Source of the DNA: Methanococcoides seepicolus
GTDB lineage: Archaea; Halobacteriota; Methanosarcinia; Methanosarcinales; Methanosarcinaceae
Assembly (NCBI RefSeq): GCF_023684405.1
Contig: NZ_JAGSOI010000020.1
Span: forward strand, 1 to 40,510
Reading direction: 5' to 3'
DNA length: 40,510 bases
The notes below the pieces were generated by a model. That model saw only the letters and a program-made list of their open reading frames with translations, was not told the origin of the DNA and made no database searches. Each line of letters begins with the position of its first letter. Positions within the stretch are counted from its first letter, which is position 1. This document shows positions 18,068-28,315 of this stretch, one piece after another. The position numbers and the translations under genes are program-made.

Positions 18068-18763
18068 TCACCTGCTTGAAATATACTCTACCATTGACTT
18101 GAACATCCTGATCCCGTCATTGGAACCGAGGACTTCTTCAGATGCCCTTTCAGGGTGAGGCATAAGACCCATTACATTTCTGTTGCCGCTGAGTATCCCT
18201 GCAATGTTCTCCTGTGAACCATTGGGGTTTACTTCTTCGGTCACATGACCTTCGCTGTCAACATATCTGAACGCTACGAGATCATTGTCTTCCATTTTCG
18301 AAAGGGTTGCTTCATCTGCGTAGAAATTACCTTCCATGTGGGCTATGGGTATGCGGATGACCTCTCCTTTCTTGAATGCGGATGTAAAAGGTGAATCGTT
18401 CGTCTCGACCCTCAAGTTCGTCCATTCACATCTGAACTTTGGGTATTCGTTGGTGGTAAGTGCTCCATCCAAGAGACCTGATTCTGTGAGTATCTGGAAT
18501 CCGTTGCAAATTCCCATTATAGGCTTTCCTTCGTCTGCCATCTTCTTGATGGAGTCCATAATAGGTGTCCTTGATGCGATAGCACCTGCGCGTAGGTAGT
18601 CGCCGTAGGAGAATCCTCCGGGGATAATTGCACCTTCATACTTATCAAGGTCGTGTTCCTTGTACCAGACAAGTTCTGCATCTGTTCCGACAACATCTTC
18701 CAGTACATGCAGAACGTCAAGATCGCAATTGCTTCCACCAAATTGAATGATGGCGATAGTCAT
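18068..18763 (-). CDS. purQ: phosphoribosylformylglycinamidine synthase, glutaminase subunit
   Basis: PurQ releases ammonia from glutamine for PurL, which converts FGAR to FGAM in purine synthesis. The 231-residue protein is a class I glutamine amidotransferase with nucleophile Cys in MGICNGFQIL (about 88-97), the catalytic His and Glu in the C-terminal MPHPERASEE, and the family's start TIAIIQFGGSNCDLD. It directly abuts purS upstream with no spare bases, so the two are coupled. PurL is not in the window. Confidence 0.96.
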   Translation of the reverse strand: MTIAIIQFGGSNCDLDVLHVLEDVVGTDAELVWYKEHDLDKYEGAIIPGGFSYGDYLRAGAIASRTPIMDSIKKMADEGKPIMGICNGFQILTESGLLDGALTTNEYPKFRCEWTNLRVETNDSPFTSAFKKGEVIRIPIAHMEGNFYADEATLSKMEDNDLVAFRYVDSEGHVTEEVNPNGSQENIAGILSGNRNVMGLMPHPERASEEVLGSNDGIRMFKSMVEYISSR

Positions 18764-19012
18764 TTAAACTTCCCTCAAGTCGATCGTATAATTATGGATC
18801 ATCGGGTTTGCAATAAGTTTCTGGCACATTTCATCAACTTTAGTCTCTGCCAGCTCTGCGGACTCTTCTTCGAGATCGATGATATATCTCTTTGAGGTCT
18901 TGATATCATTTGTGTGGTAGCCAAGGTGTTCAAGTGCTCTCTTGATAGTAGTGCCTTCAGGGTCCAGCATTCCTGACTTACGTTCTATGGTTACTTCTGC
19001 ACGGTATTGCAT
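18764..19012 (-). CDS. purS: phosphoribosylformylglycinamidine synthase subunit PurS
   Basis: PurS is the small dimeric subunit that bridges PurL and PurQ in bacteria and archaea with split FGAM synthase. The 82-residue length and the pattern AEVTIERKSGMLDPEGTTI with the central ALEHLGY segment are typical. ATG follows GAGGAAAAAA. It is the first gene of the purSQ pair; a TATA-like element lies near 19154-19162 on the minus strand. Confidence 0.95.
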   Translation of the reverse strand: MQYRAEVTIERKSGMLDPEGTTIKRALEHLGYHTNDIKTSKRYIIDLEEESAELAETKVDEMCQKLIANPMIHNYTIDLREV

Positions 19013-20610: not shown

Positions 20611-20620
20611 CTGTATATAT
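20611..20620 (+). promoter_or_regulatory. box A of the asparagine-synthetase-like gene
   Basis: CTGTATATAT predicts a start near 20641. That rules out the upstream ATG at 20624 and favours ATG 20651 or 20675 as the translation start. Confidence 0.4.
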
Positions 20621-20674
20621 TCCATGTGTCAATTTCCGATACATAAATATATGGTAGACAAGTGTTCAAACTAC

Positions 20675-22150
20675 ATGGGCAGAATCGCAGGTTTCTTCAA
20701 ATTAGCTTCTTCTTCCATCAGTATGGTTAAGATCTTTAATGAAATGGAATCTCGTGGTGACTATAAAGCTTTCATCTATACAGGCGATGGTATTCATAAG
20801 GTGTGTTCTGCCTCTGAAATACAGTCCATGTCACTCAATGAAGCCATGATAGGTTTTGATAGTCTGGCAGCTTCATCCCCATTGAGTTCATCATCAGACC
20901 AGTTCGAATTTATCGGAGATACTGACATCTACAATTTAGATGAGCTTGCATGTGAACTTCATTGTGATGCTGTGGAGAACATGTCAATTCTGACACGACT
21001 TTTGCAGGATACTTTCAGCCTTGATAACTGCAGTGATCATGAGATGTTCCAACGTTTTGATAGTTCATTAAGGACTATTCGCGGGGTTTATGCAATTGCC
21101 TTTCATATAGGTGATAAACTGTTTCTCGCAAGAGATCGGATCGGTATAAAACCTCTCTGGTATGACGTATCTTCCGGTTTTGCATTCGCTTCGGAAAAGA
21201 AGTTCTTAGAGATGTCCGGGCTTCATGAAGTGGTGGAACTTGATCCTCGGCAGATCCTATGCTACGATCTTAAAAACGATACTATAAAGGTATACGATAG
21301 AGAATTTTTGCAGGGACTTGCAGAACATCAGGGATCTTTTGTGGAGGTCCGGGATGGTCTTCTTTCTTTGCTTAAAGACGCGGTCTCTATACGTGTGCCG
21401 GATGAGGATTTTGGTGTAATGTTCTCAGCAGGAATTGATTCCACTATCCTCGCCCTGCTTTGTAAAGGGTTTGCTGAAGCTAAAGGCGTAATATGTAATT
21501 GTTATACGGTGGGACTTTCAGGGCAGGTCCCGTCACCGGATATCACCTGTGCAAGAAAGCTGGCAGATGAGCTTGAACTTGAATTAAATGTGCATGAGAT
21601 CGGTCTCGATACTGTGGAAGAGTATCTAAGTACAGTTGTCCCTTTGATAGAGGATGCGACCGTTCCGAAGACAGGTGTCGCATTGACGATGTATGCGGCA
21701 TGTAAGGCGGCAAAGAATGATGGCATAAATATATTGTTCGCAGGTGCCGGAGCTGATGAACTTTTTGCCGGATATAACAGGTTCAAAAGTTCAGCATCTG
21801 TAAATGAGGATTGTATCAGGGATATCATGGAAATGCATGAAGTGAACACGTATCGCGATGATACGGTCGCGGCGTTCACGGGAGCGAAAGTGCGTCTTCC
21901 CTATCTTGATGAGAAGTTTGTGGAATATGCCCTTGCCATTCCAAAAGAGTATAAGATCTCCGATGAGATGAACAAGATCATCCTGCGAAAGGCAGGTGAG
22001 GAGCTTGGGTTACCAAAGTATGTGACCGAGAGGGGGAAGAAAGCTGCTCAGTATGGTAGCAGGTTCGATCAGGCTTTAAAGAAGCTTGCAAAAAGAGCAG
22101 GTTTTGCGAATAAGACCGATTATATCAATAGTTTTCAGGAGAGTAGATAA
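20675..22150 (+). CDS. asparagine synthetase-like protein lacking the glutaminase cysteine
   Basis: The C-terminal half is an asparagine-synthetase ATP-pyrophosphatase domain with PP-loop FSAGIDSTILALL and the block LFAGAGADELFAGYNRF. The N-terminal half is a class II glutaminase fold (RGVYAIAF, LFLARDRIGIKPLWY). Active glutaminases of this class begin MCGIAGF, with Cys2 as the nucleophile; here the corresponding start reads MGRIAGFF, with no Cys. The enzyme could therefore use free ammonia, or act on a different substrate. ATG 20675 is chosen because it matches the family start and fits the box A at 20611; ATG 20651 in the same frame is possible. It is followed by dph6 with one base between, so the two are probably co-transcribed. 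Confidence 0.82.
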   Translation: MGRIAGFFKLASSSISMVKIFNEMESRGDYKAFIYTGDGIHKVCSASEIQSMSLNEAMIGFDSLAASSPLSSSSDQFEFIGDTDIYNLDELACELHCDAVENMSILTRLLQDTFSLDNCSDHEMFQRFDSSLRTIRGVYAIAFHIGDKLFLARDRIGIKPLWYDVSSGFAFASEKKFLEMSGLHEVVELDPRQILCYDLKNDTIKVYDREFLQGLAEHQGSFVEVRDGLLSLLKDAVSIRVPDEDFGVMFSAGIDSTILALLCKGFAEAKGVICNCYTVGLSGQVPSPDITCARKLADELELELNVHEIGLDTVEEYLSTVVPLIEDATVPKTGVALTMYAACKAAKNDGINILFAGAGADELFAGYNRFKSSASVNEDCIRDIMEMHEVNTYRDDTVAAFTGAKVRLPYLDEKFVEYALAIPKEYKISDEMNKIILRKAGEELGLPKYVTERGKKAAQYGSRFDQALKKLAKRAGFANKTDYINSFQESR

Positions 22151-22151
22151 A

Positions 22152-22841
22152 GTGAAACTCGGCGTTCTTTTCAGTTCAGGCAAGGATTCCTGCTATGCAT
22201 TGCATCTTATGCAGGAAAAAGGAAATTCCATTGAGTGTTTGATCACGATAAAAAGCAAAAATCCTGATTCATATATGTTCCATACCCCGAACATCGACCT
22301 GTCAAGGTTGCAGGCAGAAGCCATGGGATTTCCTCTTCTGGAGACCTTTACAGAGGGAGAGAAGGAGCTTGAGCTTGATGATCTAAAAAATGCCATCCTG
22401 GAAGCAAAGAAGGAATACTGTCTCGAAGGGATCGTGACAGGCGCACTGTATTCCAATTATCAGAAGGACAGGATCGAAAAGATATGCAATGAGCTTGGCC
22501 TCGATGTGTTCTCACCATTGTGGCATATGGACCAGGAGCAGGAAATGCGGGAACTGCTTGACAATGGATTCAGGTTCATTTTCAGCAGTATAGCTGCCTA
22601 TGGTCTTGACAGTGGCTGGGTAGGAAAGGAAATTACTGCTTATGAAGTGGATAAGCTCGTAAAGCTCAATGAAAGGATCGGCTTGAACATTGCAGGGGAA
22701 GGTGGTGAGTTCGAGAGTTTTGTCATCGATGCACCAATGTTCAAAAAGAGGATACAGATAAACAAGTATGATCTTGTCGAGAGGGATGAATATACGGCGA
22801 GGGTAATTATCGAGGATGCTGTGCTTGTGGATAAGGGCTGA
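22152..22841 (+). CDS. dph6: diphthine--ammonia ligase
   Basis: This ATP-pyrophosphatase of the MJ0570 family performs the last step in making diphthamide on elongation factor 2. The PP-loop LFSSGKDSCYAL is at the very start, and the family's EGGEFESFVIDAPMF block is near residue 185. The start is GTG 22152, behind GGAGAG, giving 229 residues and a normal N-terminus (KLGVLFSSGKDS); an upstream in-frame start at 22086 would put about 20 unrelated residues first and overlap the previous gene. It sits one base after the asparagine-synthetase-like gene, a second enzyme of the same ATP-pyrophosphatase fold. Confidence 0.93.
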   Translation: MKLGVLFSSGKDSCYALHLMQEKGNSIECLITIKSKNPDSYMFHTPNIDLSRLQAEAMGFPLLETFTEGEKELELDDLKNAILEAKKEYCLEGIVTGALYSNYQKDRIEKICNELGLDVFSPLWHMDQEQEMRELLDNGFRFIFSSIAAYGLDSGWVGKEITAYEVDKLVKLNERIGLNIAGEGGEFESFVIDAPMFKKRIQINKYDLVERDEYTARVIIEDAVLVDKG

Positions 22842-27790: not shown

Positions 27791-28315
27791 ATGCTTTCGG
27801 AAAGAATAGTGGTCACTAAAGATGATATTGTAAAACTGAACGTTGATGCAATCGTAAATGCTGCCAACAATTCTCTTCTTGGTGGCGGAGGTGTTGATGG
27901 TGCTATACATAAGGCTGCAGGACCACAACTTCTTGAGGAATGCAGATTTCTCGATGGATGTCTGACAGGTGAGGCTAAAATAACCTCAGGCTATCGTCTT
28001 CCTGCAAAATATGTCATCCACACGGCAGGTCCAATATGGAAAGGAGGCTTTTCGGGTGAGGATAGCATGTTGTCCAAATGTTACCGTAACTCTCTGAAGG
28101 TCGCTGTAAAGAACGGTGTCAGGACGATCGCTTTTCCCTCGATAAGTACGGGTGCATATGGTTTTCCTGTGGAGAAGGCGGCGAAGATAGCCATGCGTGA
28201 GATAGCTGGTTTTCTTGAGAAAAATGGGACCATTGAGAAGGTACTGGTTGTTTGTTTTAATGAGGAGGCTTTCAGGAGCTATTCGAATGCTCTTGAGGAA
28301 GTTTTGGGGAATTGA
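27791..28315 (+). CDS. macrodomain ADP-ribose/O-acetyl-ADP-ribose hydrolase
   Basis: The 174-residue protein is a single macrodomain of the MacroD type. The ligand-binding blocks are present: [20 protein letters not shown] (residues ~18-37), [15 protein letters not shown] and the phosphate loop [12 protein letters not shown]. Members remove ADP-ribose from proteins or deacetylate O-acetyl-ADP-ribose. It stands alone, 45 bases after the permease on the same strand. Its start is ATG 27791; another ATG at 27784 is out of frame. Confidence 0.95.

What the first reader, a model, noticed from the sequence alone, without database searches (positions are those of the whole stretch)
20675..22150. Asparagine-synthetase-like enzyme without the glutaminase nucleophile, paired with dph6
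The N-terminus reads MGRIAGFF where active enzymes have MCGIAGF. The synthetase domain is intact. It is joined by one base to dph6, another ammonia-using ATP-pyrophosphatase. It may be an ammonia-dependent amide or acyl-adenylate ligase with a new substrate.
Basis: partly seen in the sequence, partly recalled or inferred. Interest (0 to 1): 0.5.

Follow-up and report, generated by a model that had tools for sequence, protein, structure and literature searches.

The report
Glutaminase-dead asparagine-synthetase-like partner of Dph6
A methanogen enzyme that looks like an asparagine maker has lost the part that takes nitrogen from glutamine, yet keeps its energy-using half and stays tied to a gene that finishes a modification of a protein-synthesis factor, so it probably uses free ammonia to make a still unknown amide.

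Summary
The gene at 20675-22150 (Methanococcoides) encodes a full asparagine-synthetase fold that begins MGRIAGFF; 11 of 11 genus genomes lack Cys2, so it is no sequencing error. dph6 follows after one base. In the family, 65 of 99 homologues are dph6-linked, 52 fused and 13 adjacent, and the trees read best if the window's two genes are a split of an ancestral fusion. A 2012 paper described that fusion and proposed that its glutaminase feeds ammonia to Dph6. The paper's own example, Methanohalophilus mahii, lacks Cys2 too, as do 20 of 64 readable dph6-linked copies. The ATP-binding half stays constrained while the glutaminase half drifts. Best reading: an ammonia-dependent, ATP-pyrophosphatase amide ligase beside Dph6, with an unknown substrate, perhaps in the translation machinery, because stand-alone relatives sit upstream of gatC-gatA in 12 archaeal families. 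Plain asparagine synthesis is not excluded. The boldest open reading is that the family amidates carboxymethyluridine at the tRNA wobble position, a step whose enzyme was still called unknown in 2025. Nothing here shows the substrate.

The parts
20675..22150 (+). AsnB-like protein, 491 aa: GAT-II domain without nucleophile plus PP-loop synthetase domain
   Evidence: ORF; PF00733 and PF13537; AlphaFold2 model pLDDT 89.4, pTM 0.90; E. coli AsnB Z 35.9, beta-lactam synthetase Z 33.9
20675..20698 (+). N-terminal MGRIAGFF, the place of the MCGIAGF nucleophile strand
   Evidence: no Cys2 in 11 of 11 genus genomes
20912..20935 (+). IGDTDIYN in place of the glutamine-site motif NGEIYN
   Evidence: alignment columns
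20675..21325 (+). GAT-II domain (about residues 1-217), folded but relaxed
   Evidence: omega 0.32 against 0.10 for the synthetase domain and 0.04 for Dph6, 21 unsaturated pairs; fold also matches GAT domains of PurF and GlmS
21425..21442 (+). PP-loop motif SAGIDS
   Evidence: S[GA]GxDS in 146 of 147 family loci, some genomes counted twice
21743..21760 (+). GAGADE, at the place of GEGSDE (Glu348) of E. coli AsnB
22037..22063 (+). family signature KKAAQYGSR, at the place of KEQFSDG of E. coli AsnB, Lys conserved
   Evidence: K.[AS].Q[YFS][GSA], a pattern made after seeing the alignment, is in 144 of 147 family loci and 0 of 5 AsnB-type archaeal proteins
22152..22841 (+). dph6, diphthine--ammonia ligase, GTG start one base after the AsnB-like stop
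   Evidence: TIGR03679 300 bits, cut-off 197
18068..19012 (-). purQ and purS, nearby context shared with four loci of the stand-alone type
   Evidence: tblastn to L092, L093, L094, L096; names read from the sequence
20612..20621 (+). possible TATA box (sequence reading only)
   Evidence: inference

Best explanation
It is a member of a widespread archaeal AsnB-like PP-loop ligase family whose glutaminase domain is dead in this lineage. The synthetase half most likely binds ATP, adenylates a carboxylate with release of pyrophosphate, and lets free ammonia attack to give an amide. It does this beside Dph6, which performs the same chemistry on diphthine of EF2 and also takes free ammonia (established knowledge). 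The window's two genes arose by splitting an ancestral AsnB-like-Dph6 fusion, and the pair probably still forms one complex through coupled translation. The N-terminal domain survives as a scaffold, not as a glutaminase. In my reading the substrate is not aspartate but an acid group in the translation apparatus. Shown by sequence: Cys loss, linkage, constraint on the synthetase half; supported by models and trees: fold, split of a fusion. Inferred: ammonia use, complex with Dph6, type of substrate.
For: No Cys2 in 11 of 11 Methanococcoides and in 20 of 64 readable dph6-linked genes of the family. Dph6 linkage in 65 of 65 such loci: 52 fused, 13 adjacent. The PP-domain trees and the Dph6 tree place the split genes among fused ones. 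omega GAT 0.32, synthetase 0.10, Dph6 0.04. Relatives with open frames of 288-407 aa, without a full GAT domain, are common across the phylum, so the synthetase half can work without one. Of 55 stand-alone loci read, 22 have gatC as the next recognised gene and 8 more have it within about 3 kb. Family members coexist with a separate AsnB over cut-off in G006 and G022, and with AsnB-type proteins of 633-650 aa in G202, G211 and G229.
Against: No activity is known. Ammonia use is inferred from the dead glutaminase; beta-lactam synthetase, of the same fold and recalled to have no working glutaminase, uses no ammonia. Most family copies keep Cys2 (44 of 64). The GAT domain at omega 0.32 is still constrained. 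G019 has a good Dph6 and no AsnB-like match, so Dph6 does not need it; L147 of the dph6-linked clade is not next to dph6. The fused model has pTM 0.68, so the domain arrangement is not settled.
Confidence: 0.52

Rival explanations
1. It is an ammonia-dependent asparagine synthetase: the same reaction as AsnB, without the glutaminase, supplying free asparagine.
For: Closest solved structures are asparagine synthetases. Stand-alone relatives in G095 and G020 pass the TIGR01536 cut-off (L086 also). The window genome has no AsnB over that cut-off. Relatives neighbour gatCAB, the genes that make Asn-tRNA. Raised from 0.20 to 0.23 after the TIGR01536 result was weighed.
Against: The window protein misses the TIGR01536 cut-off (192 of 267 bits). 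Family members coexist with other AsnB-type genes in at least five genomes. No AsnRS over cut-off in 10 of 10 genomes, so free Asn is not needed for translation (inference). Linkage to dph6 is unexplained. Residues of the E. coli enzyme are replaced, but this does not discriminate.
Confidence: 0.23
2. It is an accessory or regulatory domain of Dph6 that no longer catalyses: an ATP-sensing scaffold that helps amidate diphthine.
For: Fused to or next to Dph6 in 65 of 65 family loci of its clade; PP-loop altered to SAGIDS in 10 of 11 genus genomes.
Against: omega 0.10 in the synthetase half; the Asp-Glu of GxGADE and the Lys of KxAxQY are invariant in 39 aligned sequences. In the family no genome showed both the dph6-linked and the stand-alone form at E up to 1e-10 (0 of 99), which suggests that one replaced the other in a shared job; but G053 and G081 each have a second match to the PP profile that was not listed and not examined.
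Confidence: 0.12
3. The glutaminase domain feeds ammonia to Dph6, as proposed in 2012 for the fused proteins.
For: Published proposal (PMC3541065, passages). Cys2 is kept in 44 of 64 readable relatives.
Against: Cys2 is absent in the window genus and in M. mahii, the paper's first example. I take G017 for M. mahii because the contig has 2,012,424 bases. The glutamine-site motif NGEIYN is degraded in both. Even Cys-bearing copies read LHSMV or LHSLV where AsnB has RLSII or RLSIV, so the Arg recalled to hold glutamine is missing (by eye, sequences).
Confidence: 0.03
4. It joins a carboxylate to an amine within one molecule or to a bulkier amine, as beta-lactam synthetase does, without ammonia.
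For: Beta-lactam synthetase follows the asparagine synthetases in fold (Z 33.9 against 35.9) and is the recalled precedent for a dead GAT domain.
Against: The frames beside it that I read look like purine, lipid, TPR, dph6 and pyruvate kinase genes, no biosynthetic cluster (by eye). The family is found in most genomes of the phylum, unlike a secondary-metabolite enzyme.
Confidence: 0.1

Closest known systems
AsnB-DUF71 (Dph6) fusion proteins of Methanohalophilus mahii and others (de Crecy-Lagard et al. 2012, PMC3541065)
   Different: In the window the genes are split, and both it and G017 lack the Cys that the 2012 proposal needs
Glutamine-dependent asparagine synthetase AsnB (TIGR01536, PDB 1CT9)
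   Same: Full-length fold, Z 35.9 over 434 residues; DE of GxGxDE and the Lys near position 449 kept
   Different: No nucleophile, below the family cut-off, QY signature near the Lys instead of FSD
Beta-lactam synthetase (PDB 1JGT, 1MBZ)
   Same: AsnB fold, Z 33.9; recalled to lack a working glutaminase
   Different: 20% identity, different context; substrate not comparable here
Stand-alone archaeal AsnB-like proteins, often upstream of gatCAB
   Same: Same PP-loop family, separated from an AsnB-type outgroup with SH-aLRT 100, and KxAxQY signature; many lack a full GAT domain
   Different: Separate clade, linked to gatC-gatA in 30 of 55 loci read and to dph6 in none of them
Eukaryotic ASNSD1 / yeast YML096W, function unknown
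   Different: No database sequence was available; an E. coli AsnB fragment scores as well with stand-alone members (75 bits), so the test is weak

Membership tests
Glutamine-hydrolysing asparagine synthetase (AsnB) | N-terminal Cys nucleophile | tested here: not met
   MGRIAGFF; 11 of 11 genus genomes without Cys2
Glutamine-hydrolysing asparagine synthetase (AsnB) | Score over the TIGR01536 cut-off | tested here: not met
   191.9 of 267.1 bits; two stand-alone relatives do pass
Glutamine-hydrolysing asparagine synthetase (AsnB) | GAT-II plus PP-loop fold | tested here: met
   1CT9 Z 35.9, 434 aligned, on a predicted model
Glutamine-hydrolysing asparagine synthetase (AsnB) | Aspartate as substrate | not testable with these tools
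   Residue comparison does not discriminate
PP-loop ATP pyrophosphatase | SxGxDS loop | tested here: met
   SAGIDS; S[GA]GxDS in 146 of 147 loci
Working class II glutaminase (Ntn) | Cys2 and glutamine-site NGEIYN | tested here: not met
   G2 and GDTDIYN
Dph6 diphthine--ammonia ligase (the downstream gene) | TIGR03679 over cut-off | tested here: met
   300.1 of 197.3 bits
AsnB-like-Dph6 fusion family | Both domains group with those of fused proteins | tested here: met
   PP tree clade of 37 rows, 100/99, 33 rows with SH-aLRT 92 when AsnB-type proteins are added as outgroup; Dph6 tree
Beta-lactam synthetase | Fold and substrate | tested here: inconclusive
   Fold matches; substrate not tested
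ASNSD1 | Sequence kinship | tested here: inconclusive
   Only a recalled fragment could be scored
cm5U34-amidating enzyme | Presence tracks Elp3 and the modified base | tested here: inconclusive
   Elp3 over cut-off in 26 of 28 genomes without the family

The most novel reading that the evidence does not exclude
The AsnB-like PP-loop family is the missing amidating enzyme of the tRNA wobble position. It turns Elp3's carboxymethyluridine (cm5U34) into carbamoylmethyluridine (ncm5U) with ATP and ammonia, and in archaea perhaps further into the nitrile cyanomethyluridine (cnm5U), as QueC goes from acid to nitrile in its own pathway. The eukaryotic counterpart would be ASNSD1/YML096W. Fusion with Dph6 would join two amidations of the translation machinery, echoing yeast, where Kti11/Dph3 serves both Elongator and diphthamide. 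In Methanococcoides this enzyme runs on free ammonia.
Probability: 0.12. Interest if true: 0.92.

Novelty: new variant of a known kind. Interest (0 to 1): 0.58.

Why it matters
It contradicts, by sequence, the published proposal for these fusions: the first-named example has no nucleophile. It also reopens the question a reviewer of that paper asked in 2012, namely what the second PP-loop domain does. The family profile matches in 274 of 295 genomes of the phylum (at least 3 of these matches are other AsnB-type proteins), its members sit upstream of gatC-gatA or are joined to dph6 in many loci, and I found no assigned function for it. If its substrate is a carboxylate in tRNA or a translation factor, it could fill a gap such as ncm5U or cnm5U formation, which papers of 2019, 2020 and 2025 describe as lacking a known enzyme.

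Tried and rejected
Sequencing error or mis-called start: rejected, since 11 of 11 genus genomes agree and the upstream MC start is not conserved in L006. Chance neighbour: rejected, with 65 of 65 loci of the clade in the family linked to dph6. Diagnostic residues (Thr321, Thr322, Arg324/325, Glu348 of E. coli AsnB; roles recalled): I hoped these would exclude asparagine synthesis, but five AsnB-type archaeal proteins (two over TIGR01536, three judged by length, N-terminus and weak match) lack them too, so they decide nothing. Co-occurrence with Elp3: matches in 52 of 52 genomes, 50 over cut-off, so the profile does not discriminate; 26 of 28 genomes without the family have it over cut-off, some of these genomes being incomplete, which counts mildly against the wobble hypothesis. 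In the first tree the five full-GAT rows (L025, L148, L159, L169, L171) were sister to the dph6-linked clade; with AsnB-type proteins added they group with the stand-alone clade instead (SH-aLRT 80), so their place is open, as is that of genus g8. Literature: I saw no paper on the Cys loss or on the gatCAB linkage in the listings, an open-licence library only; of those papers I opened only PMC3541065. The fused AlphaFold model did not settle the domain arrangement (pTM 0.68). The genome-contig scan gave only three loci, all close relatives.

Full report
Observation. The window ORF 20675-22150 (+) and dph6 at 22152-22841 are as described. The first protein carries PF00733 and a GATase_7 match and falls short of the asparagine synthase model (192 of 267 bits); the second passes Dph6_archaeal. 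The three named relatives, at 92-96% identity, are Methanococcoides. All 11 genomes of the genus, the window's included, have MGRIAG or MSRIAG.

Distribution in the family. Of 111 genomes of the family, 99 have a homologue at E up to 1e-10. They fall in two groups: 65 like the window (E below 1e-80) and 34 weaker ones (best E 1e-15 to 1e-48, two of them fragmentary); no genome showed both in that search. G053 and G081 of the first group have a second match to the PP-loop profile that was not listed and not examined. I read all 65 loci of the first group: dph6 is fused in 52 (five frames cut by the end of a contig or stretch) and adjacent in 13, namely the 11 Methanococcoides and two genomes of genus g5. 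I read 14 of the 34 weaker ones and saw no dph6 in the flanks read. In the first group Cys2 is present in 44, absent in 20 and unreadable in 1. The 20 are 11 Methanococcoides, one of genus g13 and 8 of 8 of genus g8.

Identity of g8. G017 of g8 lies on a contig of 2,012,424 bases. The M. mahii genome paper gives a chromosome of 2,012,424 bp (PMC3017947, one part of eight read). So I take G017 for M. mahii, the first example in the 2012 paper that proposed glutamine hydrolysis by the fused GAT domain as the ammonia source for DUF71/Dph6 (PMC3541065, outline and passages read). Its protein starts MQKLISIF and reads DSGLCE where active enzymes have NGEIYN. The mechanism therefore cannot hold for that example as read here. 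A reviewer had asked what the AsnB-like PP-loop domain does; the listing showed no later answer.

History. In a tree of the PP-loop domain (82 rows) the dph6-linked proteins form one clade of 37 rows with 100/99 support, including fused proteins of two other archaeal families, f10 and f20, and one row, L147, without dph6 beside it. With five AsnB-type proteins added, the family stands apart from them (SH-aLRT 100) and the dph6-linked clade holds with SH-aLRT 92. The split genes of Methanococcoides lie beside the fused gene of g13 in the PP trees and among fused ones in each tree, so a fission is the simplest history. In the Dph6 tree the Dph6 parts of the fused proteins fall in one clade with f4 and f27 and apart from the Dph6 of two stand-alone-type genomes of the same family (G095, G020), as if the fused gene had travelled as a unit. 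In f10 and f20 five rows keep MC (L137-L140, L176), four have no Cys2 or no GAT domain (L141, L142, L145, L175) and one is unclear (L146), so glutaminase loss probably happened several times. The window has purQ and purS nearby, as do four loci of the stand-alone type (L092, L093, L094, L096).

Constraint. Within Methanococcoides (10 loci) omega is 0.32 for the GAT domain, 0.10 for the synthetase domain and 0.04 for Dph6 (21 unsaturated pairs). In g8, also Cys-less, it is 0.33, 0.16 and 0.11 (16 pairs). In two Cys-bearing genera GAT omega is 0.16 and 0.15 (6 pairs each), and in group g4 0.10 (only 3 pairs). The glutaminase half is relaxed though not free; the synthetase half is not.

Structure. 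AlphaFold2 gives pLDDT 89.4 and pTM 0.90. Foldseek and VIA-align put asparagine synthetase first (1CT9, Z 35.9, 2.7 A over 434 residues), then beta-lactam synthetase (Z 33.9). The fused protein L015 gives pLDDT 85.5 but pTM 0.68.

Wider family. A profile of the PP-loop domain matches in 274 of 295 genomes drawn from the phylum (E up to 1e-15); the list of places was cut, and at least three of the 274 (G139, G162, G212) match only through other AsnB-type proteins of 618-633 aa. Of 20 further genomes checked by place, 20 have a family match; 19 of these loci and one more (L228) were put in the second tree and fall in the stand-alone clade. Many members have open frames of 288-407 aa and lack a full GAT domain. 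I read the flanks of 55 stand-alone loci outside the dph6-linked clade and outside the full-GAT rows L148, L159, L169 and L171. In 22, gatC is the next recognised gene downstream, followed by gatA (gatB in 20, topA in 19 within the stretch); in 8 more gatC-gatA lie within about 3 kb; 25 have neither, 11 of them L086-L096. The 22 span 12 families. Gene names are from NCBIfam on representatives. The signature K.[AS].Q[YFS][GSA] is in 144 of 147 loci and in 0 of 5 AsnB-type archaeal proteins.

Mechanism. Chemistry of PP-loop ligases (established knowledge) plus a dead glutaminase suggests adenylation of an acid and attack by free ammonia, as in Dph6 and NH3-dependent NAD synthetase. That the two forms were not seen together in the family suggests that the dph6-linked form does the job of the stand-alone form. 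Coexistence with other AsnB-type genes argues that this job is not bulk asparagine synthesis, but does not prove it, and two stand-alone relatives pass the asparagine synthase model (G095, G020).

The bold reading. The enzyme that makes ncm5U from cm5U was 'not known in any organism' in 2019 (PMC6412123, passages) and 'yet unknown' in 2025 (PMC11696611, passages); cnm5U of archaea arises 'through unknown mechanisms' (PMC7694415, passages) and is also found in Thermococcus kodakarensis (PMC11323500, passages). YML096W had no known function in 2013 (PMC3854871, passages). An ATP- and ammonia-using ligase linked to gatCAB and dph6 would fit. Yeast Kti11/Dph3 links Elongator and diphthamide (PMC10468694, start of abstract in the listing). 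Among the archaeal control genomes PF00733 rings in M. jannaschii, H. volcanii and M. acetivorans and not in S. acidocaldarius, while the Elp3 model rings in all four (which controls pass its cut-off is not stated). This agrees with the review's statement that cnm5U occurs in haloarchaea, M. maripaludis and M. jannaschii and is absent in other archaea, but PF00733 is broader than this family and the sample is tiny. Against it, Elp3 is over cut-off in 26 of 28 genomes that lack the family. I give it 0.12.

Verdict.

Noticed in passing
L003 and L032 (Methanococcoides sp. SMBSF15), dph6: The dph6 frame is interrupted by a stop codon in this metagenome-assembled genome.
   Followed up: no
L143, L144, L149, L150, L152, L153, L155, L157, L158, L160-L162, L164-L166, L168, L170, L172, L225-L227, L030: The stand-alone AsnB-like gene precedes gatC-gatA (in most also gatB and topA) in 12 archaeal families.
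   Followed up: partly
L086-L096, L026, L027: A MinD/CooC-like ATPase gene follows the stand-alone AsnB-like gene in 13 of the 14 loci of this type read in the window's family; L024, with a short flank, shows none.
   Followed up: no
L239: Dph6 of family f4 lies in a 405-aa open frame, longer than usual, and groups with the fused Dph6 clade.
   Followed up: no
L209, L213, L214, L216, L218, L220, L221, L222: In families f13, f18, f23, f30 and f31 (presumably haloarchaea) the AsnB-like gene lies about 2-3 kb from gatC-gatA, with TFB-like and NUDIX-like frames on the other strand near or between them in several (names from reading the sequence).
   Followed up: no
window 27791-28315: A macro-domain-like protein by its N-terminal sequence (read by eye).
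   Followed up: no
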